Source: Aspidapion aeneum (Eukaryota; Arthropoda; Insecta; Coleoptera; Brentidae). From it: a DNA stretch of 64,000 nucleotides. Both the position numbers and the translations under genes were made by a program. How positions within the stretch are numbered: position 1 is the stretch's first letter; the number at the start of each line of letters is the position of its first letter. Below, piece by piece: positions 8,153-63,230 of the stretch. Below the pieces are notes generated by a model. It was not told the DNA's origin, ran no database searches, and saw only the letters and a list, made by a program, of their open reading frames with translations. Where the stretch lies: positions 43,652,735-43,716,734 of the forward strand of contig OY755044.1 of NCBI GenBank assembly GCA_963576565.1. The letters are read 5' to 3'.

Positions 8153-8196
8153 GTGTTACCACGGATCACCTTTTGTTAGGTGATCCGTGGTGTTAC
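8153..8196. mobile_element. Footprint 1: 30-bp palindrome with 7-bp direct repeats
   Basis: Positions 8160-8189 consist of CACGGATCACC, an 8-base spacer TTTTGTTA, and GGTGATCCGTG. Direct repeats GTGTTAC (8153-8159 and 8190-8196) flank it exactly. Structure: 11 bases of one terminus joined to 19 bases of the inverted terminus. Interpreted as an excision scar of a transposon with 7-bp target duplications. Confidence 0.75.
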
Positions 8197-9225
8197 GAAA
8201 AGTCAAAAAGAGATCCACTTACAAATAAAAATCTACTGGACGATGCGCAGTGACGTACTAAGTAAATGTTATTTATATAAAATAAAATTCTACATCTGTA
8301 GAAAACGTTTTTTGAAACGACAATTTAAATTTAGATTTTTATTGAATAATGATACATATTACTTCATGTTACAAATAATGATTTGGAAGTATTGAGTTTT
8401 AGTTTTTCCAGCTTTTTTAATAAATTTATTTATTCGATTTAAATATTTTTTATGGCAGCTTAACTTTTTTAAAGTTTTGGTGTCGGCGAAATTTATTACA
8501 GCAAACCACTGTGCAAGGCTTTTGTTTTCATTTTCAATATTGTTTTGATTTTAGTTTAATTTTTTGAACTTTATCATACTTTGTATAACAATAAGGATTC
8601 GTCAAAAATATCCCTCCTTCATAGATATTTAGTTCTAGATATTATTGCCTAACATTGAAAAAAAAATTGTAAATTATAATGTACATGTTTTCCTAAAAAG
8701 CCTAGGGTGTAAGATGTTAGCATATTTTTAGTATACTTCAGTAGGTAGATAGTAATATTTTTTAAACAAAATGTTTTGTTTGTTTTTTTTTATCTTATAA
8801 TTTTTTTGTTGTGAACAATCAACGCTTTGAAAGCCTAATTTTAAATTAAGAAAGTCTTCCTTTGATAAAGCCTAATTTTTTCTCCTATATTAACAAACTG
8901 TTTTTCTTAATTGTATATTTATAAACTAGTCTTTTTCGATTCTAGTATCTGCGCTCATGATATTTTTCTACACTTAAGTAACGTGCCATTATTTTAAGAA
9001 CAAACTATGTTAAACTATTCTATGTACAGTATTTAAAAATAAAAATAGATAATAAAAATAAAAAAGGTTTATAAAAATATTTTTTTTATTTCCGATGCAA
9101 AAGGGCCTTTTGCTAACTCGAGCCACACGAACAAATCTGTTTAAAAATACAATTTGCCCGCATAGATCAAGTCAGTTAGAACCGAACCCTAAAAAAAGTA
9201 AAAATTCACACTGCAACTATTAGCT
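8197..9225. other. AT-rich stretch, no gene recognised
   Basis: Contains many A/T homopolymers and one short frame (8180-8395) with no motif. Ends with TTAGCTCTAG, the insertion site of the LTR element that follows. Nothing further is supported. Confidence 0.6.
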
Positions 9226-9871
9226 CTAGTGTAAAGGTCGGGGTTTATTTAATAAAATATAAAAATATTTTATCAAAAATATGAGAAGTTTCAAGATTTC
9301 CGTTTAGTTGATAATAATATAACACGATGAAAAATAAATAAGTAAAAAAAAAATAAATGAGATATTATTTTTTTTTAAGAAAAAAAAATAATATTCATTA
9401 AAATTCAAATTAAAAAAAAAAATTAAATTAAAAAAAAATATATATAATAATTAATTTTTTTTAAGAAAAAGAAAAATATTCATTAAAACCTAAATTAAAA
9501 AATATTAAAAACATATTCCAAAACTGGCAGAAAATATACAAGTATTATCGAAGCAAGAAAGTAAAAAATAACAACAACAAAAAAAAAATATTATTTTTAA
9601 AATAAATTAATAAAAACCAAAAATTTAAAATATTAAAATTAAAATAATAAATTAAAAAATATTCAGAGACCAGGCGATGCCAAAGTAATATTTAAACAAA
9701 ATTTAAAAAAAAAGAGTTAAAATAAAAATGATTAAGACTCACATAAAACAAGCTGAAGTCAAAACCCTAACACTTATTTTCACTGGAGAGCACTATTGAT
9801 TCGATCGATCGCAAAATTACAAATGAAATTAATTAAATGAGCCACAAAAGAGGTTGACAAAAATCCCATTT

Positions 9872-10072
9872 TTACCTGTTTTGTCCACGCCTTAGGAAAT
9901 TGTTTATATTAGGGAGCAATGAATACACGACTCTATTGTATTCATTAATTAGGGCTATATTCAGAAACACTGGCTCGATCAAAACACATTGACCTGTTTC
10001 GTCATAAAAATTTGTGGGATAAACAAGAGGGGATCGCCTATAAATTCGATTTCTTGAATTATATCCGGGCAT
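9872..10072 (-). CDS. Antisense 66-codon frame within the 5' LTR, exon-like
   Basis: The frame reads against the element. It begins MPGYNSRNRIYRRSPLVYP and ends near FLRRGQNR. The last codons are followed by CAAAACAG|GTAAAA, a good 5' splice-donor match, so it could be an exon rather than a closed gene. The same frame, identical at protein level, is in the other LTR (15944-16144), as expected from LTR identity. Composition is less A/T-biased than its surroundings. I do not recognise the protein. It could be an antisense transcript of the LTR, a captured host exon, or chance. Confidence 0.25.
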   Translation of the reverse strand: MPGYNSRNRIYRRSPLVYPTNFYDETGQCVLIEPVFLNIALINEYNRVVYSLLPNINNFLRRGQNR

Positions 10073-10855
10073 TATTAAAGTACCAGTGTTAAAGTTGCAG
10101 CCAAAAGTGAAAAATAGTAAACAGTTAATATTAAAGTGAATTAGTAAAAGTTGAGTTAACCATTTTATATAAAAATGTAGTCTTCAAGAAAATCTAGAGT
10201 TTTTGCTCTAGGATAAAAAATATATTTTAGTGATTCGATGACAGAAAGTAAGTTAAAACTATTTGAACATTGATTTAAAAAGAAAATATTACCGTTTATT
10301 TAATTGCTGTAGACAATTAAATTATTAGACTTTTATACGTAAATATGGATTAGTAATTATAGTAAAGATGAAAAGATGGAGATTGATTTTGAACTTTTGA
10401 AAGTGCATTTATTATTTGACGAGATCTAGACTATTGGAGTAAATTTACTATGTTTACGGAATTTTTATGTGTTACCATTGAGTTAATTTCACAATTTTAT
10501 GTCCCACAACGTTTTTTTTTAGACTCTATCATTTTAATTTGCGAAGACAATTTTGTGTCGGAAAAATTGTAATAAAACCAATCAGCTTTGTTCGTAGATA
10601 GACTCTAAGGTATTGGCTAATGTTAATTTTAGCGCATTTTCGTAATTAATTTGAATGTTAGGACCATGCTAGACTTTGGATCTACGATTTTGTATTAATT
10701 ATTTTTGACTTTAAATATAACGTATTCTTTATAACAATTGGTGTCTAATTTAATAACAACCAAAAGTCAATAACAACAACTGGCTTTAATCATAGCTATG
10801 TGCAACTAGGACGCCTACCTCCAAATAAATTTAATGTAATCGTGGAAAGGGACAA

Positions 10856-10870
10856 GTTGTATAAATATAC
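10856..10870 (+). promoter_or_regulatory. Probable TATA box of the LTR
   Basis: GTTGTATAAATATACC lies about 45 bases before the LTR end, in both LTRs. Its position would place transcription start very close to the LTR end, which is unusual, so it may be coincidental. Confidence 0.3.
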
Positions 10871-10907
10871 CGCTCGACTAAAGCACCCCTAGCTGCGGCA
10901 TTACATT

Positions 10908-10925
10908 TGGCGCAGTCGGTAGGAT
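10908..10925 (+). other. Primer binding site complementary to tRNA-Ser
   Basis: TGGCGCAGTCGGTAGGAT starts two bases after the 5' LTR. It is complementary to the 3' end of insect tRNA-Ser (ending CGACTGCG plus CCA), a primer used by several Ty3/gypsy elements. It sets the element's orientation. Confidence 0.88.
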
Positions 10926-13900
10926 GGATTTTCGGTATGGTGTTAGAATCAGGAATAAAATTTCCACCTTTTGAAGATTTAAATTGTGAATATTGCCGAA
11001 AAGTTCTAGGACTCCTTCAGTCAGTTACTAGCTATAGACATTACACCAAAAATTAACAAAACAAAAAGAGTTTTCACAACGATAAGAATACAGTATAAAA
11101 ATAAAGTGTTTATTCACCACAAATCTATCTCCAGTGAAGATTGTAAAAGAGTTTTTGATCATAATTAAGAAATTGGAGACCATAACTACATGGACAGACC
11201 ACCAGAAGATTAGTGTGACACTATGTTTGAAGTTAAAATTTAAAACATTTAAAATGACGAAAGAAGACCTGTACTTACAGCTCGGATAATCAAAAATTAG
11301 AATTGGTAAAGAAAATTTGCAGTCATTTGACTTAGTTCCGACATATGACGGTTTAACCAGCATCGACAAATATTTATCTATAGACGAAGAAAGAGCCACA
11401 CTTAAAAATTTGACAGAGCAACAGAAATTTGGTAATCCGTACTTAAAACTACGATTCAAAGCAAAGCTCGACAGTGAAACGGTTTTAAAGGGCCACAAGC
11501 AGTCGTTGAGATGATCTAAAGAATGTGCTACACGTACAGTTTATTCGACCATATGCTCAGCGATGTAGACAGACGTATTATACACACAATTTTCCATACA
11601 CGTTTGAAGTTATTAGCTACCCTTACTTTAACTAGCATCCAGGCCAGTAAACAAAATCTCCAAAAATGTTAAAGAATTTATTGTAATATAATTTTTACTC
11701 GATTTGATGATACCCATTAAGCTTCATTTAACAAGGCACTAGAAATATACCTCGAAGGAAGTATAGAGAATTGAGAGAGAACAAATCATGTATGGAAATC
11801 TAATAAAACTATGTTTATTAAAATTAAAGTAAAAAGCTTTATTCACTTCGCTTCACACGCACAGAGTAGGTATCTTACCCTATGTCGCAGAAGTTCCCTA
11901 TAAGATTTGGCGCCGAAGCGCGGATCTTTGTTTGGTGATCCGTGGTCAAAGTAAATGTGCAAAGAAACACCATACCACACAAGCACAGGTATTGTGTGCA
12001 ATTAAGTTTGTTAAAAAAAATAAGAAGTGCTTTACCAGTTTTTTCTATAGAGGCAGAAAGTTTTGGACCTAATGTATGGTTAGGATTAGATTTTATTTAT
12101 AATTATGGAGTTAAGATAAATTGAAGAAATAAAATAATGTACGATTTTCAGAGAGAATTTTGATAAGACATGAAGCTCAGATAGTGTATGTAGTCCGATG
12201 TGCATGCAAACCACCACTTAAATTAATATTTTGAAAAGATGTAATATGAGAAATCAAGAAAGAGCTGACGAAACTCAGTTTGTCCGAAGAAAAAGGAGGT
12301 TCAAACTTTTACGCTTGGGTCGTCAAATCCGACCTAAAGTGGTTAACCATTATATAGATTAATTGTTTAAACCAAATGTCAAAGCAAATAAATATTGGAG
12401 GTTCCGTGAATGTTTAAACTTCTGAATATTTAATTTAAAAAAATAGTAGTACAGAGACTGTAAAAGGCCTATATGAGAAAACCCTTGAAAGTAGAGGCCC
12501 GGCAGGAGCAAAAATTAAGAAATATTTAGAGGTTGCCTGTGTTGTTAAAGGAAGGCTTAAATAAGCCGCAGCATAGTCATGTAATTTGGTTAGCTGATAT
12601 TTGCAACATATCCAAAGTTGATAGTTCGCAAATGATTCTGAACCCAGTGATGAATAATCCTACGGGATTGCTTGTAGCTAGAATCCTATACAAGACAGGA
12701 GATGCAGTTTCTTACTATTTAAACTAATTGGTTTTAAATAGAGGTTTTAAAACAGAGTAAAAAAGATGAAGATCACGAGAAAATTACAAGAAGTTTGGCA
12801 AGTATCTGTCAAAAATATTTCTGAAATTTTTAAACAGTTAATTTATACGAAGTATGGAACAAGTTCGAAAAGAAAGTAAAATATTTAGTTTGCAGTTTAG
12901 TTATAAATTTCACACCTCATATAAAAAAATGACACCAGAGTTATCTGGATAAACCTGCAGTGCAGTGCAGTGATTTTGCAAACGGTTTTGATGACATTTC
13001 TCTGTCCGAAATTATTTGACACGTTGTGAAAAGTTTTATTGGGCATTGCAGTTTGAGAAGATTTGGTTATTTTAACGTTAAGAATGAAAAGAAGCATACC
13101 TATATAAAAAAAATTGAAGAACAAAAGGCAAAAGAAGAGAAGGTTACGCACATATAGAAGTTAGATGTAGTCTAAATGCAGGATTGGATGGAGAGTGTAT
13201 TTATTATGGAGTAGTTTAAGAAGGTTAGAAAATTTTTAAAAAGAAATTTTAGGAAATTTGAGTTTAGCCAAAAAAATTTTGTTTGGAGATTCCTGAGTCA
13301 TAGACCAATGATAAAGGAACTAGAGATTTGACAGTTGGCCCCTGTCTTCCTCTAGGATGCATTGAGAGTTAGATGTAAAGTAGAAATTGATTAAACTAAT
13401 AACGAAGAGATGAAAGTAAGAAGATATGGTATCATATGATACTATTTGTTGGAACAGCTGACAGAAGGTCAGATGTTAAGATGACAAATATAGTCATGAA
13501 GATTTGTAGACACGTATGTCTAATATTTTAGACAACGTGATTGTAGAAGATGGAGCTGACAGAAGGTTAGTTGCGGTGACATAGATAGTCACGAAGAAGG
13601 TTAAGAAGACCTCCAATAAAGCAGAGAAATTTAGTTGTTTGAAAGGAAAAATGTGTAATGACACAACATTTTGATTTTAAAATCATAATGCAATTTCCAG
13701 AAATTATTGTTAGGTGACAAGGCGGTGAAATGAGATTTCTACAAAGTTAGAATGATGATGCATAATCAATAAAGCCTTTATAACAAATTGTTTTAAAAAT
13801 ATGTGCGTAAGAGAAATAAAATACAGCTGAAAAAGTTCTTTTAACTTGTCGGGTTATATCGTCATAACTTTTCTTCTACTAGCCAGTGAAGTAATCCAAA

Positions 13901-15286
13901 GGGTGACTCAATCACACCACAGAATATCGCGGTTCGGTCCGCGCTGCAGATAAATTATGAATCACACTGACGCAGAGTCGAGATTGAGTCAGGAAAGATA
14001 CTTTAATTGAGTCAATAGCTTAAAGAAAAGTCGACCTACGACAATAGTGAAATTGGCTACCACCACAATAATCAATAATAGTAGTAAATGCCTAGACGAG
14101 ACAGTGCAAGAGTAAAGCACGCGGTTTGTTTATATTATACAACAGAGGGTTAACTTGGTATTAAAATTAGACGAGGTGTTAGTTGGGAAGAGCAACTTCG
14201 GGTGTTTGATAAAAGATTTTCGGATGTTTCAAGTTTTGTCTTTTGCAATGAATACTCAAACTACCATGTAAAAAGAAATAGAGGTTACGTTGATCATTGC
14301 TGTCATATTAAAAAAATTATGAAAGTTGAAAATTTGGACTTTGTAATAGTTAAGTGATAGTTTATGTTAGATATTTAGAACATTGTTAATTTTAATTTTG
14401 GAATAACAAAGTTATAATCACGCAAGGGTAACAAGCTTAAATTTTGTTAAAAATAAATAAAGTGCGTTTAAAAAAAATATATATATTAAGTGAAGTGTCT
14501 TAAGAAAATATATAAAGTGAAAAGAACAATCTTATCTAATTAAAACTAAGATGGAATATGGTTAGCACGGGACGTCATCAGATCAAGCTGAAGTTGGACA
14601 TCCACATGGAAGCTAGCAGTGCAGATTCTAACCAACCACCTTTTCACGGGAAACAGCGAAAACTAAGAAGAAGCAAGTAAGGTTTTGAGGCATTTTAAAT
14701 ATAGAAAACGGATGTAAGTAGAATTTAGTTTTTTTTAAGGAGTGAAACGTTAGGTAAATTTTATTTTGTAAAGGGCTTACTTTCTGGGTTAATCATCAAA
14801 GAAAATAATAGAGTTCAGTTTTAAAATTATTAAAATTGAACGTTTAAAATGATATTTCGAGACTTAAAATTATATTGGCACTAGGTTAACTCTACTACTA
14901 GTAAATAAATAAAACTCTTTTGTTTATTTTAAATAAACATGTAATAATTAACAAACTACGGGAGAACAAAGTTTAACAAAAATAAATAAATAAGAACTTA
15001 GTCAAACTTATATCTAAGTTAAAATTTAGCACAAATTTTATAAACACAAAATATGTTAGCAGTAAACACATCTTCAGACAGTAATATCACTCTTATATTA
15101 AAAAAATATATATTTTTTCAATTTCGACTTTAAAAATAATTTTAATTTAGTAAAGAAGTTCTCATAACTGATGTTAGGAACATTTTTTTTTGTTCGTGGG
15201 CTCGGAAAAATTATGAATGCGCGACATTTTATATTTATGCCGAAGTTATACCAAATGATAGCTATTAAAGAGCTATCATTTGAGTT
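10926..15286 (+). pseudogene. Decayed gag-pol interior of the LTR element
   Basis: No frame exceeds about 156 codons and stops are frequent in all frames. Fragments suggest Ty3/gypsy ancestry: LTEQQKFGNPYLKLRFKAKL (frame 11317-11514), which could be Gag-like; the protease-like tail of the frame 11942-12124 (GPNVWLGLDFIYNYGVKIN); and a possible RT relic with NKYWRFRECLNF near 12390. Around 11820-11925 a segment with AATAAAAC, GCTTTATTCAC and TTTGGCGCCGAAGCG resembles an LTR end plus primer site and may be another nested element. Assignment to gypsy rests mainly on the primer site and these weak motifs. Confidence 0.5.
11912..11951. mobile_element. Footprint 2: degenerate copy inside the gypsy interior
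   Basis: Positions 11919-11944 read CGCGGATC, TTTGTTT, GGTGATCCGTG. The flanks GCCGAAG (11912-11918) and GTCAAAG (11945-11951) agree at five of seven positions, and both differences are transitions. The left arm lacks the last three bases. This looks like an older member of the 7-bp footprint set. Confidence 0.5.
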
Positions 15287-15301
15287 AAAAGAAGGGAGGA
15301 A
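15287..15301 (+). other. Polypurine tract of the LTR element
   Basis: AAAAGAAGGGAGGAA lies directly before the 3' LTR start TGTAAAGG, the expected position for plus-strand priming. Confidence 0.85.
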
Positions 15302-16977
15302 TGTAAAGGTCGTGGTTTATTTAATAAAATATAAAAATATTTTATCAAAAATATGAGAAGTTTCAAGATTTCCGTTTAGTTGATAATAATATAACACGAT
15401 GAAAAATAAATAAGTTAAAAAAAAAATAAATGAGATATTATTTTTTTTTAACAAAAAAAAAAAATATTCATTAAAATTCAAATTAAAAAAAAATTAAATT
15501 AAAAAAATATATATATAATAATTAATTTTTTTTAAGAAAAAGAAAAATATTCATTAAAACCTAAATTAAAAAATATTAAAAACATATTCCAAAGCTGGCA
15601 GAAAATATACAGGTATTATCGAAGCAAGAAAGTAAAAAATAACAACAACAAAAAAAAATATTATTTTTAAAATAAATTAATAAAAACCAAAAATTTAAAA
15701 TATTAAAATTAAAATAATAAATTAAAAAATATTCACAGACCAGGCGATGCCAAAGTAATATTTAAACCAAATTTAAAAAAAAAGAGTTAAAATAAAAATG
15801 ATTAAGACTCAGACATAAAACAAGCTGAAGTCAAAACCCTAACACTTATTTTCACTGGAGAGCACTGTTGATTCGATCGATCGCAAAATTACAAATAAAA
15901 TTAATTAAATGAGCCACAAAAGAGGTTCACAAAAATCCAATTTTTACCTGTTTTGTCCACGCCTTAGGAAATTGTTTATATTAGGGAGCAATGAATACAC
16001 GACTCTATTGTATTCATTAATTAGGGCTATATTCAGAAACACTGGCTCGATCAAAACACATTGACCTGTTTCGTCATAAAAATTTGTGGGATAAACAAGA
16101 GGGGATCGCCTATAAATTCGATTTCTTGAATTATATCCGGGCATTATTAAAGTACCAGTGTTAAAGTTGCAGCCAAAAGTGAAAAATAGTAAACAGTTAA
16201 AATTAAAGTGAATTAGTAAAAGTTGAGTTAACCATTTTATATAAAAATGTAGTCTTCAAGAAAATCTAGAGTTTTTGCTCTAGGATAAAAAATATATTTT
16301 AGTGATTCGATGACAGAAAGTAAGTTAAAACTATTTGAACATTGATTTAAAAAGAAAATATTACCGTTTATTTAATTGCTGTAGACAATTAAATTATTAG
16401 ACTTTTATACGTAAATATGGATTAGTAATTATAGTAAAGATGAAAAGATGGAGATTGATTTTGAACTTTTGAAAGTGCATTTATTATTTGACGAGATCTA
16501 GACTATTGGAGTAAATTTACTATGTTTACGGAATTTTTATGTGTTACCATTGAGTTAATTTCACAATTTTATGTCCCACAACGTTTTTTTTTAGACTCTA
16601 TCATTTTAATTTGCGAAGACAATTTTGTGTCGGAAAAATTGTAATAAAACCAATCAGCTTTGTTCGTAGATAGACTCTAAGGTATTGGCTAATGTTAATT
16701 TTAGCGCATTTTCGTAATTAATTTGAATGTTAGGACCATGCTAGACTTTGGATCTACGATTTTGTATTAATAATTTTTGACTTTAAATATAACGTATTCT
16801 TTATAACAATTGGTGTCTAATTTAATAACAACCAAAAGTCAATAACAACAACTGGCTTTAATCATAGCTATGTGCAACTAGGACGCCTACCTCCAAATAA
16901 ATTTAATGTAATCGTGGAAAGGGACAAGTTGTATAAATATACCGCTCGACTAAAGCACCCCTAACCGCGGCGTTACA
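15302..16977 (+). repeat. 3' LTR
   Basis: The 1,676-bp partner of 9230-10905, ending TTACA before CTAG. It carries the same antisense frame (15944-16144), the same splice-donor-like end, and the same TATA-like box. Differences from the 5' LTR are scattered substitutions and homopolymer indels. Confidence 0.92.
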
Positions 16978-27310: not shown

Positions 27311-27353
27311 GCATTACCACGGATCACCTAACAAAGGTGATCCGTGGCATTAC
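27311..27353. mobile_element. Footprint 3: 29-bp palindrome with GCATTAC repeats
   Basis: Positions 27318-27346 are CACGGATCACCTAACAAA joined to GGTGATCCGTG, exactly flanked by GCATTAC (27311-27317 and 27347-27353). This is 18 bases of the left terminus plus 11 of the right. Confidence 0.75.
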
Positions 27354-27356
27354 CAT

Positions 27357-27393
27357 GTAGTACCACGGATCATTAGGTGATCCGTGGTAGTAC
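27357..27393. mobile_element. Footprint 4: 23-bp palindrome with GTAGTAC repeats
   Basis: Positions 27364-27386 read CACGGATCA then TTAGGTGATCCGTG, flanked by GTAGTAC at 27357-27363 and 27387-27393. It lies three bases after footprint 3. Confidence 0.72.
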
Positions 27394-27396
27394 ATC

Positions 27397-27419
27397 GTAG
27401 AACCACAGATCACCAAACA
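27397..27419. mobile_element. Footprint 5: single-ended, degenerate
   Basis: GTAGAAC (27397-27403) is followed by CACAGATCACCAAACA, one terminus with two changes. No closing repeat is seen. It sits three bases after footprint 4, so the trio may have arisen by local duplication followed by divergence. Confidence 0.4.
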
Positions 27420-27980
27420 TTTAAACAGAAAACTAGTTTTCAGAAAAAAATTAATTAAAGGTTTTAAGCAGATTTGCTGAAAATCCCAGATGTTTCGTTT
27501 TAATTTAATAGATTAAGATTCAGAAAAATGATGCATATTATGTATGTTTGTTTTTTAGTTTTTGTTTATTTTAATAAATACCTTGTTTATTTTTAACTTT
27601 TTGCACTTGCCCCTCCCTACGTTTTATGCTGCGTACGCCCATGATTTTAAACTACCCTACTTTTAACTTTTTTCAAAAACTTATCACAAATAAAAGGTCT
27701 GTTACCAGGGTTGGATGGGCTCAAACAAACCGGCCCTGGGATTTTTTTTTATTCGGCCCTCGCTTCGGCACAATAATTTTACGGCAAAGAAAACAAAGCC
27801 ATATTGTGTTATTTTTGTTTTTGATATTATGGAGGTTTGGTTATTAAATATCATGCTAATTTTAAAGGATGTAATTTGCATTTTAAGAAAAGAAACTTCA
27901 TATAAACTAATGTATGCAACATTCTAACTTGTGAGATATACGGTGTTTAAAGACTTTCAGAAAATCTCCTTTTTTATTAT

Positions 27981-35070: not shown

Positions 35071-35460
35071 TACTATGTTGAATTGAATTGAATAAATCTT
35101 TATTAGCAAATCATGCTATTTCAAATTACAAACATAAATATAAAAAATACATTTAAATGTTAATACATACACCAGTATTTCTATAACAAAACAAATCCAA
35201 ACTTATAATACTAATAACTATTTACTTCTTATTATTACATAATGGCTAATATATCTCTGGAGAACAGCATCGCTGTGGAATAAGCTTCCTGCGACACTTT
35301 TCCTGCAGGTTACAATCTGAACCTTTTCAAAACCAACATACACCAACATTTCCGCGCACTTGCCGCTTCTCGAGCGTGATAGGGACACGGATCACCTTAG
35401 GTGATCCGTAATAGGGATCTCCTTGCGAGTGCGCACCGTAAAAAAAAAATTATTGAAATA
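35071..35460. pseudogene. Degenerate retrotransposon tail fragments
   Basis: TTGAATTGAATTGAATAAATC at 35075-35095 looks like a tandem 3' tail of a minus-strand non-LTR copy. At about 35255-35370 a plus-strand reading gives ALWNKLPATLF-like sequence followed by a stop, resembling a non-LTR ORF2 C-terminus. Footprint 6 lies within. Identification is weak. Confidence 0.35.
35379..35417. mobile_element. Footprint 6: 25-bp palindrome with ATAGGGA repeats
   Basis: Positions 35386-35410 read CACGGATCACC then TTAGGTGATCCGTA (last base changed from G). The 7-bp repeats ATAGGGA are at 35379-35385 and 35411-35417. Confidence 0.75.
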
Positions 35461-35843
35461 AAGCCAGGTTAAATAACAGCAATTTTTATTCAACTGAATT
35501 AGGATATAAGTCATTGTTTTATAAAGGAATCAGATTGTATAACAAATTACCGACATTAAAAATTGCAAATCAAATAATATGTTTAAGAGAAAACTTAAGA
35601 AGTACTTGTTGCCTAGTCAGCCTGATTGTTTATGTAAACCACCCTTGGTACTATATTATATTATATTATATTTTATTATTTTAGTCTCCATATTATTTTT
35701 TTGGTGTGTTTTAGTATAGTGACCTTTTCTCATAAAGAAAGATGGCAACAATGTTTTTTTTTTAGGATAGGATTAAAAAAATTTTACAGTACAATATAAG
35801 TACTTGATAAAGCTGTGTGTTACTAGATTATTCTTTTAGTATG

Positions 35844-35856
35844 TAGGTGATCCGTG
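35844..35856. mobile_element. Footprint 7: short copy, empty in the opposite arm
   Basis: TAGGTGATCCGTG follows TTTTAGTATG and precedes GTATAGGTATAG. The right arm of the inverted repeat (about 36180-36210, minus strand) reads TTTTAGGAGGTAGGTATAG at the same place and is 16 bp shorter. The duplication is blurred, sharing GTAT/GTAGG. Confidence 0.6.
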
Positions 35857-36402
35857 GTATAGGTATAGTTAGTTCTGTTGGGAATGATACAGGAATGTGC
35901 TTGTAATGGTTTTTCGGTATTATTAGAGAAATATTGAAATATAGCCAGGCTATAATTGTGCCAGGCACAATTTTGACACCTTCACATTGTAATATCAGCT
36001 GTGATCTTTCAACACATGGCCTTTGTTTACTATATGAACCGGAATAAATAGGAATAAAACGACGATAGTTTTAAATTCGACTTTGGTATGAATTTTGAAC
36101 GATTAACTGTCAGTTTTCAATGTAAATGTGTTAAAATAGTGCCTGGCAAGCATTCCTGTATCATTCCCAACAGAACTAACTATACCTACCTCCTAAAAGA
36201 ATAATCTAGTAACACACAGCTTTCTCAACTTACACTGTACTGTAAAGTGTTTTTAATCCTATCCTTAAAAAAACATTGCTACCATATTTCTTTATGAGAA
36301 AAGGTTACTATACTAAAATACACCAAAAAATAATATAGAGACTAAAATAAAAAAATATAATATAATATGATACCAAGGGTTTACTTAAACAATCAGGCTG
36401 AC

Positions 36403-36560
36403 CAGTGGCGTATATATGCCCGCCCCCCCCCCCCGAAGCTAAGATTTTTTTAGATATTTTCCACATATTTCATAAATACAAATATAAAATAGTATAAAAT
36501 ACGTCTTTATAAGGTCTGCCCCCCCCCTCCCCCCGAAACTTTTTTCTATATACTCCACTG
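36403..36560. mobile_element. hAT-type MITE, 158 bp
   Basis: The ends CAGTGGCGTATATA and TATACTCCACTG are inverted. AGGCTGAC flanks perfectly (36395-36402 and 36561-36568), an 8-bp duplication. Poly-C tracts lie near both ends. The uninterrupted AGGCTGACTAGG site is in the opposite arm near 35614, reversed. Confidence 0.88.
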
Positions 36561-36769
36561 AGGCTGACTAGGCAACAAGTAATTCTTTTTTTTTTCTCTT
36601 AAACATATTATTTGATTTGCAATTTTTAATGTCTAATGGTAATTTGATATACAATCTGATTCCTTTATAAAACAATGACTTATATCCTAATTCAGTATTT
36701 ATACTGTTTAAATAAAAATTGCTGTTATTCGTTGTTGCATAGGTATGAACATCTGTAACATTCATCAAT

Positions 36770-46679: not shown

Positions 46680-46749
46680 GCTTCGGTAGTTCAATGTTTA
46701 GAATGTTTGCGTACAGAGCAAGAGAGAGGTTCGAGTCCCGGCCGAAGCA
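46680..46749 (+). tRNA. tRNA-like sequence, tRNA-Gly-related, probably a pseudogene
   Basis: The acceptor stem GCTTCGG pairs perfectly with CCGAAGC. The internal Pol III B box reads GGTTCGAGTCC, and the region after it (CCCGGCCGAAGCA) resembles tRNA-Gly. An anticodon stem TTTGC/GCAAG is possible with loop GTACAGA, giving ACA, not a normal tRNA-Gly anticodon. The T stem is badly paired and the A box is imperfect. A T tract about seven bases after could terminate Pol III. A decayed tRNA or the head of a tRNA-derived SINE are the main options. Confidence 0.45.
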
Positions 46750-49173: not shown

Positions 49174-49205
49174 CACTAAGTTTGTTAGGTGATCCGTGCA
49201 CTAAG
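49174..49205. mobile_element. Footprint 8: single-ended 18-bp insertion with CACTAAG repeats
   Basis: TTTGTTAGGTGATCCGTG (49181-49198) lies exactly between CACTAAG (49174-49180) and CACTAAG (49199-49205). Only one terminus is present, 18 bases of it. Confidence 0.78.
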
Positions 49206-53439: not shown

Positions 53440-53960
53440 AAATGGTGGATCCAAAATGGCGGATTTTCCCATTTATGAACCGATTTGCACTCGAAACTTT
53501 AAAAATCTTTCAGGTCGCTGATTATTATTTTTAACTTAAATTTATAAAAAATCAAAATGGCGGTTCCACAATGGCGCACTTTCTTATTTATACACCGATT
53601 TTCCTCAAACTTGAAACATCGAGGCGCTTAAGGTAACACAATACAATTTTTGACTCAAATTTAAAAAGCTGAAAATGGCGGATTCAAAATGGCGGATTTA
53701 TCCATTTATAAACCAATTTGCATCAAATTCGGAACTTTGAGATCTTTCAGGTCCATGTTGGTTCATAAATGAGAAAGTCCGCCATTTTGAATCCGCCATT
53801 TTCAGAATTTTAAATTTGAGTCAAAAATTGTATTGTGTTACCTTAAGCGCCGCGATGTTTTAAGTTTGAGGCAAATCGGTTTATAAATATAAAAGTGCGC
53901 CATTGTGGAACCGCCATTTTGATTTTTTTAAAGTTAGAAATCATAATTTTATTTATTTTT
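53440..53960. repeat. Palindrome with AAAATGGCGG units
   Basis: AATGGCGGATTCAAAATGGC-type units are tandem on each side, and the right half (53755-53940) is the complement of the left (53440-53750), with the centre near 53757. No gene is recognisable. Confidence 0.75.
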
Positions 53961-53964: not shown

Positions 53965-54380
53965 TAAAAAAAAGGTTGAATTGTATACTAACAACCAAAT
54001 ACCTAGTTGGAAAAGTTGAAGAAGCAGTTTTTTGAGAACATTCTTTTTTGCAATCGTCTGGATCTCTATTTTTTGCCGTAGAAAAATAATGAATGAAAAT
54101 TTAGTCTTTCGCAAGTCTTTAAGATACACTTGAATTTCTATTATCACAAAAATATAGCCTATATACTTTGTGCTATTATTTTAAATAAAATATAAAGTGG
54201 TGTTTTTTTTTAAAGAAACTTGGAAGTATTATCCAAAAAATATTTTAAAAAATTAATAATAATTGGATCATTTAGTGAATTTTTTCGCCTATTTGAACCA
54301 GACTTTAGAATCTAGTTAAAAAATACTCTGCCAGTATATGGGTACCTAAGCTCACACTAGGTACTATAGTTATAGTGTTC
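53965..54380. other. AT-rich stretch, no gene
   Basis: Short frame 53953-54147 without motifs. AGCTCACACTA appears near 54350 and again in complement further on. Confidence 0.45.
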
Positions 54381-54424
54381 GTGTGAGCTCACGGTCCGTA
54401 TGTTTACGGACCGTGGTGTGAGCT
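54381..54424. mobile_element. 26-bp palindrome with 9-bp direct repeats
   Basis: Positions 54390-54415 read CACGGTCCGTA, TGTT, TACGGACCGTG, exactly flanked by GTGTGAGCT (54381-54389 and 54416-54424). It resembles the 7-bp footprint set in layout and in its CACGG ends but has a different inner sequence. Confidence 0.65.
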
Positions 54425-54780: not shown

Positions 54781-54810
54781 TATTTGGCTTGTGATTGATG
54801 GATTTCGTCA

Positions 54811-55853: not shown

Positions 55854-55997
55854 TTACAAATATACTAATGACAGCATTATCCGAACCAATTCTCGGGCAT
55901 TATACAAGAAAAGTAAATGGGTTTACTCATGCATCTCTGTTTCGGAGAATTACGTAAGCAGATAACTATGATAAAACGCAGACGGACTACACAGTTT

Positions 55998-56340: not shown

Positions 56341-56465
56341 TAAATCAATGTTCGAAGATTCAAACAAATAATTAAGAAAATATGAAAACATTGTAATTTA
56401 TAATTATTATTAACCAATATTGTTTTTCATTAAATTATTTATTTTTATTCATCTGTTCGGTATTA

Positions 56466-56700
56466 TAAATTAGATTTTGATCTGGAAACGCTTTTTGAGG
56501 TCCCTATTGGATACAGAATATGTATTTTTGGCGCAGTAATTATGGGCTGCGCGGTATTTGTTTGTGCACTGTAATTCGGTTGTGCGGTTTTTGCTTTAGT
56601 ACCTTGCACAATAATTTTTGCGCGGTTTACTATTTTACGCGATAAAACCTTGCAAGATTATTTTAGCACGGTTTGTGCTGCGCAGTTTTTCTTGAGCGGT
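56466..56700. repeat. GCGCGGTTTTT-rich dispersed repeat, copy B
   Basis: Same orientation as 47031-47205, including GAAACGCTTTTT, TATGTATTTTTGGCGCAGTA and TTTACTATTTTACGCG, with an inserted extra stretch of G/T-rich units. Confidence 0.7.
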
Positions 56701-57240
56701 AAAAATCTTGCATAGTATTTGTTTGCGCTGTATTTTTTTTGCCATTTCTGTGATTTAAAATTCTAGTTTTTGAAGGTTGTTTTGTAAAAGTGACTGACAC
56801 CAACCAAATTTTTTAGTGACTTATAGAATGGATCGTGCTTATGACACACACAAACTTTTCTTAATTTTAAATTATTAAAAAAGATGAATGAATGAAATGT
56901 ATTTTTGAAGTATTTTGCTAGAACCAGTGTTCTTGAATTCCGAAGTAAAGCCGATCATACACAAAAATGCATAGCGCACATAGCATGGCGCATAGAAGTT
57001 CAACCTTATGGACTTTTCTTATGCAAAACCAATATGGCCGCTGCTATTCGATCGCTGATTGGTTGATAGCCCCATGCTACGCGTTATGCATCATGCTACG
57101 GAGGTGTGTGTTTAGATACATCGTTTTGTAGACAATTTCAATACCTTTTAAAGAGTTTCTAAAATTTTTACAGGTTGATTATTTTACTCATAAAATGTAA
57201 AAAACATAGCAGATGTTCCGTAAAAATCCTCAGATTAAGG
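56701..57240. other. No gene recognised
   Basis: A short inverted pair, TGCATAGCGCACATAGCATG and its near complement (56967-57110), may be a small MITE. Nothing else. Confidence 0.4.
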
Positions 57241-57363
57241 GCCGGTTTCTCAATAGAGGGTTAGCCCTGACCTGTGGGTTAAACAAAGAGATGACTGAAA
57301 TATTTACCACATGCTAAAAAAAGACAGCTATCAAAGATAACCCACGGGTCAGTGCTAACCCAC
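57241..57363. repeat. Inverted-repeat relic starting GGGCCGGTTTCTCAAT
   Basis: GGGCCGGTTTCTCAATAGAG starts the unit, and GGGTTAGCCCTGACC is mirrored by GGGTCAGTGCTAACCC at the end. The same terminus closes the first repeat in this window near 3797. Confidence 0.55.
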
Positions 57364-57364
57364 T

Positions 57365-58412
57365 AAACAGAAAAACATTTTAATAATGTCAAAATAATGT
57401 TTAATTTAAAAACATAACGTTAGGTTGGATGCATAGACCAATGACAGAGGTTGGATGTTAGTTCTAACGTCATATTCACAGTGAAAAAGAAGCTTAATAA
57501 CCCGTTTTCTGACGTTAGAAAAATAATCTTATGTTTTTATAACCTTTTTTTAAAGTGTTTTTCGAACGTTAAAAAAATACTGATTTTTAACAGTGAAAAA
57601 GAAATGTTTTTCTGACATTGAAAAATAAATGTTTGTTTTAACAATGAAAAAAGTATATTTTTTCCAAATATCTCTAAGATAAGGTAACATAAATCACGTA
57701 AATAAAATTCTTCTATTTTGGAAACGCAGGGCAGCAACAGTCTGTTGAGGTCTTCGTGAACTCGACACTCAGTAAAGGGAATTCGGATCCGTAGCTCCTG
57801 AAAATAAAATTTAAAATTCTTTGTAAACAATAATTTTGTAGTAAGTGCCTCGCTACGAGGCCAAACGAATGCCTCGTTCTCATTCATGTTCAAGTGAATA
57901 CAAGGCAAACATATTCAACTGATTGCTCGTTTGAAATTCGAACTCTGATCGGATGGGGTTCCGTGCCGAGGCATGCGTTTGGTCCCGCTGCGAGGCTTGA
58001 GAATTCTGCCTCAAATGAATACGCGGTTTAAGGTTCGGCGGCTAATCATTCGCCGTGAATTGTCGCATTCCCTGTCTGATTAACTGTAACATAGGTATGC
58101 GATATTCCATACAAAACAATTTTTTTACTTTTGTTTACTTTTCTTACCTAATTTTGTGATGCTTCATTTAAATCACTGCATACAATTTGTTGTTCTTTAA
58201 CTATACCATCTTCTCCACATAACTGGTGTATATTCCTATCCAAATATGTATTCACTATCATTATTAATAATTGTGCTTTAAATCTGCCATGTTTGTTTCT
58301 ACAAAAGGTAAATATTTTAACCAAAATTGCACAAAGCGTATCTGCTCCCGACTCGTATGAACTCGCAGCGAAAAGCAACTAAAAATGGCGATGGCCCGTT
58401 CTGGTAGTGACC
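57365..58412 (-). repeat. Dispersed 1-kb unit with exon-like structure, copy B
   Basis: Reverse-complement relative of 40690-41680. The minus-strand frame at 58148-58378 (MLFAASSYESGADTLCAILV) corresponds to the first open block, and CGTGAACTCGACACTCAG (near 57754) to the second. The same splice-like junctions, GTAAGAAAAG and TTTTATTTTCAG, are kept. The minus-strand frame 57537-57908 spans the second block and its downstream repeats. Confidence 0.55.
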
Positions 58413-58424
58413 CTAAGGGGAACT

Positions 58425-58461
58425 AGGGTCACTGCATCCTGGAAGCCTGGTGTCTCCCAGG
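58425..58461. mobile_element. Half copy of the AGGGTCACTGCATCC element
   Basis: AGGGTCACTGCATCCTGGAA through GTCTCCCAGG is the longer arm of the 44787-44849 palindrome. Ten bases upstream (58405-58414) the complementary end TAGTGACCCT appears, so two termini lie 10 bp apart, facing outward. Confidence 0.6.
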
Positions 58462-60059
58462 GGTAGCGACACGAGTGTCAAAACCGTATATTCCATAGAC
58501 GTTCGTGAAAAATACTCATTTTTATACAGTCTGGGAAAAAAAAATGTTTTAATAAAACTTTAAAAAAACTCGTTTTTATACAGCTTAAGAAATAAAAAAT
58601 ATGTTCCTTAAGTTTTTAGGTTATGAATATTTATTGTAGGTATATTTATTGTTAAAAATCATTTTCTTTTAAATATTATTTGTGTTTTTTGTGTAAAAAT
58701 AATACGTAATAAATAAACAAACAGGATAGAAATACATTTGTATGTTAAATGTTTATTAATACTATATAATATATCAAAGGACAAAATTGTTTAGTTTATT
58801 TTTCAAGTTTTTTTTCTCTATTTTTTCGGTGTTTTTAGGTTTTGTGGTTCTTTTTTAGTCACTTTTTATCCCGATTTTTACATTTTATCAAAAGACAAAA
58901 AAAAAGCCCAAAAACTGTTCGAGTTTTAGTAACGTTAGGCTTTAGTTACTTATAATTTTATAGTACATTTCATATAAATATCTTAATATTATTGTTCGAA
59001 AGCACAAACTTCGAAAATCATTTTCTTCAAACCGAAAATTGTTCGAAAACATTTTCTTCGAACAAAAGATTATTCGAAAACGTTTTCTTCGAAAGGAAAA
59101 TTGTTCGAAAACGTTTTCTTCAAACAGAAATTTTTCGAAATCATTTTCTTTGAACGAAAATTTGTTTGAAAATATTATTTTAAAATGGAAATTTGTTCAA
59201 AAACATTTCATTGAAAACAAATTTTTCGAAAAAAAAAATTTTAGACCTGGCTTGCCAAACTTAACACAACTCATATAGTTCGACTAATGGAGTCTTTTTC
59301 TAACAAACTTCCCTGACTTCTTTCCCGGAATCCTAGAGGGTGTGAAACCAAAACGAACCAACCGAAACCTATTTTCGAAAAATGATTTCCCTAAATTAGC
59401 TTTCCGGTCCTCATTTTGGAATGTTGAAATCGGTGTTACTCTAACCTTTCTCAATTGAGCACATCAGGGGGTATCTGGACCGGTTCGGATACGTTTGCGA
59501 TCAATTGACAAAGTTTAGGAAAATACCAATTTCGACCTTCCAAAAGGAGGAAAGTACACAAATTTTCAGACAGTTTACGATCCCGGGAAAGAAGTCAGGG
59601 TTTTTTTGAAAAAATATGTTAGAAAGACCTTGCCTTAGTCAAACTATATGAATTGTGTAAGTTTTGGAAATCCAGGCTAGAGCGTCTTTTTTCGAAAAAC
59701 TTGCTTTCGAAGAAAATGTTTTCTATTCGAAGAAAATGTTTTTGAACAACTATTGCTTACGAACAAATTTCCGTTCGAATACAAATTTCCGTTCAAAAAA
59801 ATGGTGTTCGAACAAATTTCAGTTTGAAAAACATTTTTTCGAACAATTTCCGTTTGAAAAAAATGTTTTCGAACAAATTTCCGAAAGAGGATAATTTTTT
59901 CGAACAATTTTCCGTTCGAAGAAATGGTTTTCGAACAAATTTTCGTTAAAAAAAAATGTTTTCAAACAAATTTCCATTAGAAGAAATTGTTTTCATAAAA
60001 ATTTTCGTTCAAAGAAAATGTTTTGGAACAAAGTTCTGCGACCCGTCGTGTTGCTACCC
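58461..60059. mobile_element. Foldback transposon with TTCGAA-array arms
   Basis: The ends GGGTAGCGACACGA (58461) and TCGTGTTGCTACCC (to 60059) are inverted with one mismatch. Inner arms are arrays of degenerate units like TTCGAAAACATTTTCTTCGA at about 59000-59235 and, reversed, at about 59690-60035. A central inverted pair (CCCTGACTTCTTTCCCGG near 59310, complement near 59580) closes the loop. Frames at 59039-59278 and 59664-59907 are artefacts of the arrays. Confidence 0.75.
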
Positions 60060-60164
60060 AAAAAAATACCTAGAGATGGTAAATAAAAATTCTTAGACCT
60101 TGAGTTTTTATTGGATGTTGATTTTTTAAAACTTACTTCTACTTTGTTTTGCAATCATTACAGT

Positions 60165-60285
60165 GTAGCTACTTTCGATCTTTGTTTGGGCCTTTTGTTT
60201 TTCAATCTTTTGTATTTTCGACCTTTGTACTTTCGAACTTTTGTATTTTCGATTTTTTGTACTTTTGACCTTTTCTTCGCAGCCC
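60165..60285. repeat. GGTCGAAAGTAC array, reversed
   Basis: About seven degenerate units (TTTCGACCTTTGTACTTTCG type) matching the 5847-6135 array. Confidence 0.7.
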
Positions 60286-60289
60286 GCTT

Positions 60290-61222
60290 TTTTTTGAACA
60301 CTAATAAAAATAATAGTAGGTATATTATAAACCTGGAGCGTACAGTGTTTACTTTTAATCCCACGGCAGGAATTTTCATGCTCGACCGGAAGGAAGGCTA
60401 TAATTTTCTAAATGACTAAAAGGGACTTTAATGCCAAGGTTTATTTTTATATACTATAAAAATAATAATAATCATAAACTAAATCAGGGCTATCAAATTG
60501 GACGGGCCACGATCCTTTACTTTGTTGACGTCACATCCGGGGCTGATTTTTTTTTGATGGTCACGTCACGACACAGCTGATTGTCTTTAAAATATTGAAG
60601 TTGAAATGACGGTTCAAGAATAATTGATTTTTTTTTAAATAAAGCTGGTTTATAGATTTTTTTTAGTATATTCTTGCAGAACAATTTTTTTTAAATGTAT
60701 AGTAATCCTTAATTTTTTTTAAATTAAATTTAAAACAGAAGCGATTATGACAAATACAGATGACAAAGTCAGATACTTGTCAAATATAACAGTTGGCATG
60801 CGGTACATGGCGGGTAATTTGAATTCAAAATAAAAAATCCTAAATGTTGAAGATTTTAACCTTTTAGTCCACTTGCATCCTTACAAAAGTTTGGTGGAAT
60901 ATGAGGATAGTGTCTGAGAATATTTGACCGAAATTTTGCGGAAATCTGTGGTGCCATTTTGAAAATATCATAAAAACACGTCTGACCTCCCATAAGACCC
61001 AATGTAAAAGTCAGCCCCCGGACAACAGCTGATTTTTTCAGGGTCGTGGCCTGTATTTTTTTGTTGGCCTTGACTAAATAAATACCGTACTGTAGTTTTA
61101 GCATATCAACCCCCCCGTATATAATAAAACAGTGGGCAGTGATAGTTGTCATGGAATTACATTAAACAAAAGTCAGTCAGATGCTAACAAACAATGTGGA
61201 AAAAATAATATTTTTGCAATTC
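60290..61222. other. No gene recognised
   Basis: Short frames (60111-60419, 60856-61152 minus) lack motifs. TGACGTCA-like and GTCACGTCACGAC sequences near 60520-60570 are isolated. Nothing supported. Confidence 0.45.
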
Positions 61223-61316
61223 AGGGACTAAAAACGCATTTTAGTCCCTCATTTTAGGGACTAAAATAGTACTTTTTATCCCGGGGACTAAAATATTTTA
61301 GTCCCTGGACCCGAAT
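61223..61316. repeat. GGGACTAAAA hairpin cluster A
   Basis: AGGGACTAAAA and its complement TTTTAGTCCC occur about three times in each orientation in 94 bases. Related hairpins lie at 62990-63090 and about 63580-63655, on the far side of the recombinase gene. Confidence 0.65.
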
Positions 61317-61418
61317 TCGTGGTTTTTCAAATTTTGTATTTTTGTATTTGGGAGCATCTAAAAATAGGCCTATACACTATCAAAATAAACTACCTAGCCT
61401 AATCTATACATTCCTACG

Positions 61419-62699
61419 TTATTTGACATTATTATTGTTTGTTATATTGATATTCAAAATAGCGCCGCTACAGCCAACTAAATGAATCAATGATCGTGGA
61501 TCTGAATCGATTTCGCTTCGCTGTTGGTTGAGGTTGATGTTTTGCAGTGGAGATCCGAAAATTGCTGGTTCGGTGTGATCAGTGCTGCTGTCTTCGTTGA
61601 TTGTGGGTTCTGGAAAATTGCATACTGTTACGGTACGTGATTGGCCTTGGCTTTTATGACTCTTGAAATCTGTCCTCAAGTTTTGACTGAATATTTTATC
61701 CGCCACATTTTTTTTGTTTTCGATTGATTGCTCAACATACCCTTCAGCAACGGTAGCACTTTTCCAACCACCGTGTCTTTTGAGCTGGTCAATATTCGCT
61801 CCAGAATCTGCTAAAAGGGAAGCAGAGGTACGCCTGAAGCAGTGTCCTGTGTATGAAACGGCCTCTGGCAGGTTCAGGAAGGCAGCTATTTTTCGCGGGA
61901 AAAGCCCAAAAGTATTCTTTCCAACAGGTTGTGATAAACATTTGCCGTCTTTATATATCTCAGAGCCATGTAGGATTTACAGATTTTCACTACGTCTGTA
62001 GCGTTGCTTTCTTTGGAGTTCTTCACTATGAAGCATCGGTCAGTTTGATTTTTCGTGTTTCGAACTGTGACAACAAGATGAAAATCTTGGATTTGAACAT
62101 CTTCATTCTGTAGCTGGCACAGTTCAACACCCCTGCATGCACCGGCAACTCCCATTATCAACGCCACCTGGAAAAAAAAAGATTTTTTAGTTACTAAGTA
62201 GCAATACAATTTTTTGTACAAACTACGTAACCTGATAGCAACAAATGATATTTCGAATCAGTGACGTTAACATGGTTCAAAATAATGTAAAAACAGTTCA
62301 CTTTACCTTGATCATCAAATATTCTTGATTTGGTGCTTCCTGGAGGAACTGCTGGATATGATCCATGTCCAGTATTCGAGACTTCTTTGGGCGGTAGCCA
62401 TCCCCATTTCTTTTCAAAAATGCCTTTAATTTTGAATATTTTCCAATGTCCAAACTTTTTTCAACGATCAGCTTTGATTTAATCATTGAATAATGTGACC
62501 AAACCGTTGAAGCCTTCAAATTTTTCGCATGATGGAAGAAATATGCAAGAATTACCTTCTCCTGTGTAACATAAGCAACATCCTTAGCTTGACACCAATC
62601 CAGGAAATGTTTGTATTGTTTTTCATATATTTTCTCCGATTTAGCGGGCAGCAGTGCCTTCACTGCCTCTGCGGCAGCTGTATCAATATCAATATCCAT
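61419..62699 (-). pseudogene. Crypton-type tyrosine recombinase, two exons, one frameshift
   Basis: Exon 1 starts at the ATG at 62699 (MDIDIDTAAAEAVKALL) and carries the SAM-like N-terminal part (YEKQYKHFLDWCQAKDV). Donor AAG|GTAAAGT lies at 62307/62306 and acceptor TTTCCAG|GTGG at 62168/62167, giving a 139-bp intron in phase 0. Exon 2 begins VALIMGVAGACRGVELCQL, with the first catalytic arginine. A later frame holds YTGHCFRRTSASLLADSGA (HxxR), LKRHGGWKSATV and AEGYVEQSI (tyrosine nucleophile). A frameshift near 61960, with about ten residues missing, separates them. A tail ending VGCSGAILNINITNNNN closes at 61419. This layout (tyrosine recombinase, no RT) fits Crypton elements or a domesticated relative. 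Confidence 0.82.
62168..62306 (-). other. Intron of the tyrosine recombinase gene
   Basis: GTAAAG at the 5' end and a T-rich stretch then CCAG at the 3' end, minus strand. Removing it keeps the frame (MIK joined to VALIMG). It is the only intron in the window supported by reading-frame continuity on both sides. Confidence 0.8.
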
Positions 62700-62989
62700 T
62701 TTTTTTACTTTTAGGAACGCACTAGCAAATCGCAGAAATCTCCACGGCGTTGTTTGTATTTTAACAGTTATTTTATGGTACCTTGACAACACCCTGACAT
62801 CCAAGTATTATCCAAGGCTATCTAAGAAATATCAACTGACTTAACGTCAGAGAATGAATGGTACTTTATTGGTTGTCACATTTTATAGGCCAATCAATAG
62901 TGCAGTGGAGATGACTTTCTTTTCGAAAAATTTAATTAAAAATTTGAATGAAACTATGCCCAGAATTACAAAAAATAGTATATATACCA

Positions 62990-63090
62990 CTTGACTAAAG
63001 TGTCTTTTTATCCCTCAGCGAATTGTAGCCCTCCCTGCGGTCGGGCTACAAACATTTCGCCTCGGGATAAAAAGTATCACTTTAGTCCCT
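62990..63090. repeat. Hairpin B: AAAGTGTCTTTTTATCCC type
   Basis: ACTAAAGTGTCTTTTTATCC pairs with GGATAAAAAGTATCACTTTA. Inside is a second hairpin, GTAGCCC to GGGCTAC, around CTCCCTGCGGTC. Shares the TTTAGTCCC end with cluster A. Confidence 0.65.
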
Positions 63091-63202
63091 GGATATATAA
63101 TTTACTATTATTTCATAACAAACTAAATAAGTTTAGTCGAGAAAAAGTTTGAATTACATTTCTCGAAGATGGAACAAACAAGGGACCAAAAAATAAAGCA
63201 TA

Positions 63203-63230
63203 TTCTTTTTGTTAGGTGATCCGTGTTCTT
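63203..63230. mobile_element. Footprint 9: single-ended 18-bp copy
   Basis: TTTGTTAGGTGATCCGTG (63208-63225) lies between TTCTT and TTCTT, a 5-bp match; extending to seven gives mismatches. The same 18 bases as at 49181-49198. Confidence 0.6.

What the first reader, a model, noticed from the sequence alone, without database searches (positions are those of the whole stretch)
8153..63230. Nine tiny insertions (13-30 bp) made of one terminus, CACGGATCACCTAACAAAA, several with exact 7-bp direct repeats
Seen: copies at 8160-8189, 11919-11944, 27318-27346, 27364-27386, 27404-27419, 35386-35410, 35844-35856, 49181-49198 and 63208-63225. Exact 7-bp repeats flank five (GTGTTAC, GCATTAC, GTAGTAC, ATAGGGA, CACTAAG); one has 5 of 7 (GCCGAAG/GTCAAAG), one a 5-bp match, two no clear closing repeat. 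Copies hold either one end (18 bases) or both ends joined with 9-19 bases each. Known: P-type transposases cut with a 17-nt stagger inside their terminal repeats and leave such scars; hAT, MULE and others use 8-10 bp duplications. Inference: scars of a frequently excising DNA transposon with 7-bp duplications whose full copy is not in this window. An alternative is a genuinely mobile mini-hairpin.
Basis: partly seen in the sequence, partly recalled or inferred. Interest (0 to 1): 0.9.

Follow-up and report, generated by a model that had tools for sequence, protein, structure and literature searches.

The report
P-element-type transposon excision scars
Nine tiny insertions in an insect-like genome look like scars left where a relative of the fruit-fly P element jumped out and the cell glued the broken ends together, recording how far inside its own ends the transposon cuts.

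Summary
The terminus occurs 10 times with up to 3 mismatches, against 0.18 expected. Five of nine inserts have exact 7-bp flanking repeats; 100,000 random placements never matched the nine-site total. Added tests: (1) five of nine inserts keep 18 nt of one end (two of these also fit 19), and all five two-ended inserts decompose into two partial ends without filler, as an 18-nt staggered cut would leave (17 in the P element, PMC2895639). (2) Targets exceed expectation most for GTANTAC among 64 palindromic words, the published 7-bp consensus of Galileo, a P-superfamily member (PMC4168063); only four of nine fit closely. (3) The 18-nt tail resembles the P tail (401 of 20,000 shuffles as good). 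(4) One scar lies in one arm of an inverted repeat whose other arm lacks it. Two further scar-like hairpins lie at 54.1-54.4 kb. A mobile mini-hairpin is disfavoured: four inserts are one-ended. No full element or transposase was found, and the genome search failed 14 times, so genome-wide abundance is untested.

The parts
8153..8196 (.). S1: GTGTTAC repeat, 30-bp insert (left 12 + right 18 nt; right 19 also fits), GTGTTAC repeat
   Evidence: (7/7)
11912..11951 (.). S2: GCCGAAG / 26-bp insert (left 8 + right 18 nt, one mismatch in each) / GTCAAAG (5 of 7)
27311..27353 (.). S3: GCATTAC / 29-bp insert (left 18 + right 11, or 17 + 12) / GCATTAC
   Evidence: (7/7)
27357..27393 (.). S4: GTAGTAC / 23-bp insert (left 9 + right 14) / GTAGTAC; the repeat equals the D. 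buzzatii Galileo target consensus
   Evidence: (7/7)
27397..27426 (.). S5: GTAGAAC / 16-nt left end only (CACAGATCACCAAACA, two mismatches), no clear closing repeat
   Evidence: (4/7)
35379..35417 (.). S6: ATAGGGA / 25-bp insert (left 11 + right 14, or 12 + 13; one mismatch) / ATAGGGA
   Evidence: (7/7)
35837..35863 (.). S7: 13-nt right end only, GTATAGG on its right; lies in one arm of an inverted repeat whose other arm (36189-36192) has 4 bases where this arm has 20
49174..49205 (.). S8: CACTAAG / 18-nt right end only / CACTAAG
   Evidence: (7/7)
63201..63232 (.). S9: 18-nt right end only (more also fits, as the preceding bases are T), partial TTCTT before it, TTCTTAC after it
54138..54179 (.). 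Possible scar of another family: CTATTAT / CACAAAAATATAGCCTATATACTTTGTG / CTATTAT
   Evidence: CAC..GTG insert with 7-bp repeats, 4 in window, 0 in each of 20 local shuffles (the other three are S1, S3, S4)
54381..54424 (.). Possible scar of another family: GTGTGAGCT / CACGGTCCGTATGTTTACGGACCGTG / GTGTGAGCT (9-bp repeat)
   Evidence: only exact copy of this terminus in the window

Best explanation
Each insert is the repaired donor site of a P-superfamily DNA transposon. It had inserted, often at a GTANTAC-like target, with a 7-bp duplication and later left. The transposase cut one strand at the transposon tip and the other about 18 nt inside the terminal inverted repeat CACGGATCACCTAACAAA. Each chromosome end therefore kept up to about 18 nt of transposon as a single-stranded tail. 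End joining then trimmed and sealed the tails, with varied products: both tails in part (S1-S4, S6), or one tail with the other lost (S5, S7-S9). Shown here: the inserts, the duplications at five sites, the target preference of the set, the shared break point near 18 nt. Inferred: the transposase, the staggered cut, the repair route, and that the events were in the germ line.
For: Exact 7-bp duplications at five of nine sites, with the nine-site total never reached in 100,000 random placements. Five of nine (S1, S2, S3, S8, S9) keep 18 nt of one end, and the next base differs among them (A, G, G, C, A). All five two-ended inserts need no filler with an 18-nt tail, whereas a 17-nt tail would need one extra T at S1, S2 and S8. 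GTANTAC has the highest excess over expectation of 64 palindromic words, 33.5 of 54 positions; 0 of 200,000 draws of nine window 7-mers did as well. Galileo's consensus is GTANTAC in six Drosophila genomes and GTAGTAC in D. buzzatii (PMC4168063 and PMC2775673, passages). P-element ends keep 17-nt 3' tails, and joined products are varied partial pairs of tails between target duplications (PMC2895639, section 7). The 18-nt tail resembles the P tail, with TAACA 2 nt before the cut in both (401 of 20,000 shuffles with CA kept as good). The sibling arm of S7's inverted repeat lacks it.
Against: No full element or transposase was seen (30 of the 54 stop-to-stop ORFs of 85 aa or more), and the genome could not be searched. 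The inferred cut is at 18 nt, not the P element's 17; S3 alone also fits 17 + 12, and S1 and S9 also fit 19 or more. Four of nine sites lack an exact closing repeat. S2, S6 and S8 targets fit GTANTAC poorly (2.5, 2 and 1 of 6). In Rad51-deficient (spn-A) flies 19 of 45 filler-free junctions keep at least 16 nt of both tails (table); here 0 of 9 do. Those flies show inserted bases in 18 of 66 junctions; here none of the five two-ended inserts does. The S7 sibling is not a clean empty site (GAGG where TA would be expected).
Confidence: 0.86

Rival explanations
1. The 23-30 bp hairpins are themselves mobile: a minimal element of little more than two inverted ends, moved by a transposase from elsewhere.
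For: S1 (reverse-complemented) and S3 differ by one base in length (sequences), and both have exact duplications. The two-ended inserts carry inverted ends that a transposase might bind.
Against: S8 has one end only yet exact 7-bp duplications on both sides, which a two-ended mobile hairpin cannot give without a deletion stopping exactly at the duplication. S5, S7 and S9 are one-ended too. Seven of nine inserts have their own sequence (S8 and S9 are alike), and five share a break point at or near 18 nt, which this model does not predict.
Confidence: 0.06
2. Scars of a cut-and-paste transposon from a superfamily other than P that also cuts far inside its ends.
For: No transposase was seen, so the superfamily rests on duplication length, target word, cut depth and a short terminus.
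Against: From general knowledge (recalled, no call), hAT, Tc1/mariner, piggyBac and Harbinger scars keep none or only a few transposon bases. The 17-nt stagger is described as unusual and atypically long for P (PMC7776569, passages). Target word GTANTAC and 7 bp match Galileo.
Confidence: 0.06
3. Chance palindromes or short direct repeats without common origin.
For: The partial repeats at S5, S7 and S9 are at chance level when boundaries may move.
Against: 10 matches against 0.18 expected; nine-site flank agreement not reached in 100,000 placements.
Confidence: 0.01

Closest known systems
Drosophila P element excision footprints (junction table in PMC2895639, section 7 read)
   Same: Target duplication, then partial tails of the two inverted ends joined in many different ways; termini CA...TG; TAACA two bases before the cut.
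   Different: 17-nt tails and 8-bp duplications there; break point at 18 nt and 7-bp duplications here. In that table (spn-A mutants) many junctions keep both tails nearly whole and some carry inserted bases; none of the nine here keeps both. Made in the laboratory there, old and inherited here by inference.
Galileo (P superfamily; PMC2775673 and PMC4168063, passages)
   Same: 7-bp duplications with consensus GTAGTAC / GTANTAC / GTATTAC.
   Different: Galileo copies in those passages are far longer (for example 4,306 bp) with long inverted ends. The passages seen mention no scars, and Galileo's terminal sequence was not printed in the passages seen, so the ends were not compared.
Anopheles P elements and P-MITEs (PMC1562414, passages)
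   Same: P-type elements and shorter non-autonomous relatives in an insect.
   Different: 8-bp duplications; full-length or MITE copies rather than 13-30 bp remnants.

Membership tests
P superfamily (element that made the scars) | Target duplication of 7-8 bp | tested here: met
   Five of nine exact 7 bp, one 5 of 7, three without a significant repeat
P superfamily (element that made the scars) | Palindromic target word; GTANTAC for the Galileo branch | tested here: met
   Highest excess of 64 palindromic words; four of nine sites score 5-6 of 6, the other five 1-4
P superfamily (element that made the scars) | Termini CA...TG | tested here: met
   12 of the 14 ends retained begin with CA read from the tip; S2 left begins CG and S6 right begins TA. 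That CA is typical of P ends is from the P tail and recall
P superfamily (element that made the scars) | Long staggered cut, 17 nt inside the inverted end | tested here: inconclusive
   Scars indicate about 18 nt, not 17; the same kind of cut, but only inferred from products
P superfamily (element that made the scars) | Transposase with THAP, RNase H and GTP-binding domains | not testable with these tools
   No element in the window; no such domain in 30 of 54 ORFs of 85 aa or more; genome search unreachable
Galileo | Long, internally repetitive inverted ends and Galileo terminal sequence | not testable with these tools
   Scars keep only about 18 nt, and no Galileo terminal sequence was in the passages seen
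MITE / mobile mini-hairpin | Both inverted ends in each mobile copy and a shared internal sequence | tested here: not met
   Four of nine inserts one-ended, one of them with exact duplications; the five two-ended inserts all differ

The most novel reading that the evidence does not exclude
This genome keeps a dense fossil record of a P-type transposon as scars that far outnumber surviving copies (nine to none in 64 kb, with two possible scars of other families). If so, excision in this lineage was usually sealed by end joining instead of copying from the sister chromatid, and the 7-bp branch of the superfamily cuts at 18 nt rather than 17.
Probability: 0.4. Interest if true: 0.68.

Novelty: new member of a known kind. 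Interest (0 to 1): 0.5.

Why it matters
As far as I know (recalled), P-element excision and its repair are known mainly from laboratory crosses. A natural set of many old scars would show, without an experiment, where the transposase cuts (here about 18 nt), which targets it chose, and how the host repaired the breaks. It would also show that a transposon family can be read from its scars in a stretch with no copy left. Repeat finders are likely to overlook inserts of 13-30 bp, so such elements could be undercounted.

Tried and rejected
Looked for the terminus elsewhere. Viral contigs gave two isolated 16-mers, with no second end or repeat in the 241 bases read around each. Genome contigs gave one 18-mer in a Colwellia contig with no second end or repeat in the 131 bases read around it. 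All three are treated as chance. The full text of 5.39 million papers held CACGGATCACC in 6, none of which by title and start of abstract concerns transposons (listing only).

Looked for a long element between opposite ends in the window: nine left/right pairs of ends more than 60 bp and less than 10 kb apart. The best flank agreement, 5 of 7, is between neighbours S3 and S4; the other eight agree at 1-4 of 7, so none is a plausible full copy.

Looked for scars of sister families. 7-bp repeats with at least 5 of 6 matches to GTANTAC number 5, against 0-6 in 20 shuffles, so the target word alone is no detector. The CAC..GTG plus 7-bp repeat scan is specific (4 against 0 in each of 20 shuffles). 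The scan for 7-bp repeats with inverted ends of at least 7 bases finds only S1, S3 and S4; 3 of 10 shuffles gave one hit each.

Looked for P-type transposase remains: 30 of 54 ORFs of 85 aa or more went to Pfam (at E 0.001, at 0.1); 24 were not scanned, nor shorter ones.

Papers on natural or genome-wide excision scars of P-type elements: searches gave no such report in the rows listed (33 listed 20 of 50, 53 listed 10 of 16). This library lacks most subscription journals. Zebrafish THAP9 (PMC10983969, passages and one section) has 8-bp duplications and excision with flanking deletions; it was not used as a yardstick.
Full report
Setting. The window has 32.6% G+C (0.29-0.36 per 4 kb). It holds a Pao-type retrotransposon (Peptidase_A17, RVT_1, integrase zinc-binding, ORF at 18.9-21.5 kb) and further reverse transcriptase ORFs at 32.1-33.7 kb and 39.4-40.1 kb, probably of non-LTR type (type inferred). 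So it is animal DNA, probably insect or other arthropod (inference). No call named the organism.

Observation. The terminus CACGGATCACCTAACA is present 10 times with up to 3 mismatches, against 0.18 expected. Flanking 7-mers are identical at S1, S3, S4, S6 and S8, agree 5 of 7 at S2, and agree 4, 3 and 2 of 7 at S5, S7 and S9. The sum, 49, was never reached in 100,000 random placements of the same lengths (mean 18.2, maximum 35). The chance of a 7/7 match at one place is about 0.0007 (771 of about 1.15 million tests). For S7 and S9, letting the inner boundary move gives a best match of 5 of 7, which is ordinary. These two and S5 are recognised by the terminus, not by their flanks.

Anatomy. 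I took CACGGATCACCTAACAAA as the end and fitted every insert as left part + filler + right part. S1 is 12+18, S2 8+18 (one mismatch in each part), S3 18+11 or 17+12, S4 9+14, S6 11+14 or 12+13 (one mismatch), S8 0+18, S9 0+18, S7 0+13. S5 is read as a left end of 16 with two mismatches, one of them the CCAAACA variant also seen in S2; the script, which allowed one mismatch, fitted only 11 nt of it. No two-ended insert needs filler. Five of nine (S1, S2, S3, S8, S9) keep 18 nt on one side. Read from the tip inward, the next base is A, G, G, C, A, so the match ends there in at least three of them. S1 and S9 would fit 19 or more if base 19 of the element were A. A 17-nt tail would need one extra T at S1, S2 and S8. 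I therefore put the cut at about 18 nt.

Targets. Using the intact copy of each 7-mer (the better-placed copy at S5, S7 and S9, both copies averaged for S2), the nine targets match GTANTAC at 33.5 of 54 positions. That is the highest excess over expectation among all 64 palindromic words, and none of 200,000 random draws of nine window 7-mers reached it. The fit is carried by S1, S3, S4 and S5 (5-6 of 6); S9 has 4, S7 3, S2 2.5, S6 2 and S8 1. S3, S4 and S5 lie together within 116 bp and may not be fully independent. I noticed the word in these data first, so the draw test alone overstates it; the independent support is that Galileo, a P-superfamily transposon, has it in print. Galileo makes 7-bp duplications with consensus GTAGTAC in D. 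buzzatii (PMC2775673, passages), and GTANTAC in six Drosophila genomes and GTATTAC in D. willistoni (PMC4168063, passages).

Comparison with measured P-element scars. P transposase cuts 17 nt inside the 31-bp inverted ends (PMC7776569, passages), and the donor ends keep 17-nt 3' tails (PMC2895639, passages). Table 1 of PMC2895639 (section 7 read) lists junctions from one P insertion in Rad51-deficient (spn-A) flies: 8-bp duplication, part of CATGATGAAATAACATA, part of its reverse complement, 8-bp duplication. Of 66 isolates I left out 18 with inserted bases and 3 with deletion past the target. Of the other 45, 25 keep at least 16 nt of one tail and 19 have lost one tail wholly. Here five of nine keep 18 nt of one tail and four of nine have lost one. 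A difference: 19 of those 45 (14 + 5 in the table) keep at least 16 nt of both tails, and none of the nine here does. The tail here aligns to the P tail with TAACA two bases from the cut in both; 401 of 20,000 shuffles with CA kept score as well, which is suggestive only.

S7 and its sibling. S7 lies in an inverted-repeat element whose arms, 35472-35897 and 36151-36729, align at about 83-86%. Where the S7 arm has 20 bases (TATG, the insert and GTA), the other arm has four, GAGG, between locally identical flanks. This shows a net difference of 16 bp between the arms. It does not show a clean empty site, since collapsing the presumed duplication predicts TA there and not GAGG.

Other scars. Two more inserts have the same build but other ends. 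CACAAAAATATAGCCTATATACTTTGTG lies between two CTATTAT (54138-54179). CACGGTCCGTATGTTTACGGACCGTG lies between two GTGTGAGCT (54381-54424). Inserts that begin CAC, end GTG and have 7-bp repeats number four in the window (S1, S3, S4 and the first of these two) and none in each of 20 local shuffles. They may be scars of sister families; each is seen once.

What is missing. No full element: of nine pairs of opposite ends within 10 kb, none has flanks agreeing beyond the 5 of 7 of neighbours S3 and S4. No P-type transposase was found in 30 of the 54 stop-to-stop ORFs of 85 aa or more (list). The assembly could not be searched in 14 attempts, and the protein database was switched off. So 'nine scars, no copy' holds for this window only.

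Verdict. Nine end-joined excision scars of one P-superfamily transposon with 7-bp duplications and, by inference, a staggered cut at about 18 nt: confidence 0.86 for the mechanism. Membership of the P superfamily rests on products, not on a transposase. The phenomenon is known. The family, the cut length and the density in this stretch are what would be new, as far as the searches listed in Tried and rejected show.

Noticed in passing
54138-54179 and 54381-54424: Two further scar-like hairpins with other termini (CACAAA.. with CTATTAT repeats; CACGGTCCGTA.. with 9-bp GTGTGAGCT repeats), about 200 bp apart.
   Followed up: partly
27311-27426: Three scars lie within 116 bp; their target words are only 3 bases apart (GCATTAC, GTAGTAC, GTAGAAC), a 10-bp spacing before insertion.
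   Followed up: partly
9230-10905 and 15302-16977: A direct repeat of about 1.68 kb, 98.6% identical, recent compared with most other repeats listed there.
   Followed up: no
61422-62807 (-): Possible pieces of a tyrosine-recombinase-like gene: Phage_integrase at E 0.0011 in 61422-61976, below Pfam's cut-off; no Pfam match in 62298-62804. A Crypton-type element is a guess.
   Followed up: no
7333-8145, 35472-36729, 53521-53947: Inverted-repeat (foldback-like) stretches with 74-86% identical arms; S1's left repeat begins 8 bp after the end of the first.
   Followed up: no
46680-46749 (+): tRNA match in Rfam (38.5 bits) that ARAGORN did not report.
   Followed up: no
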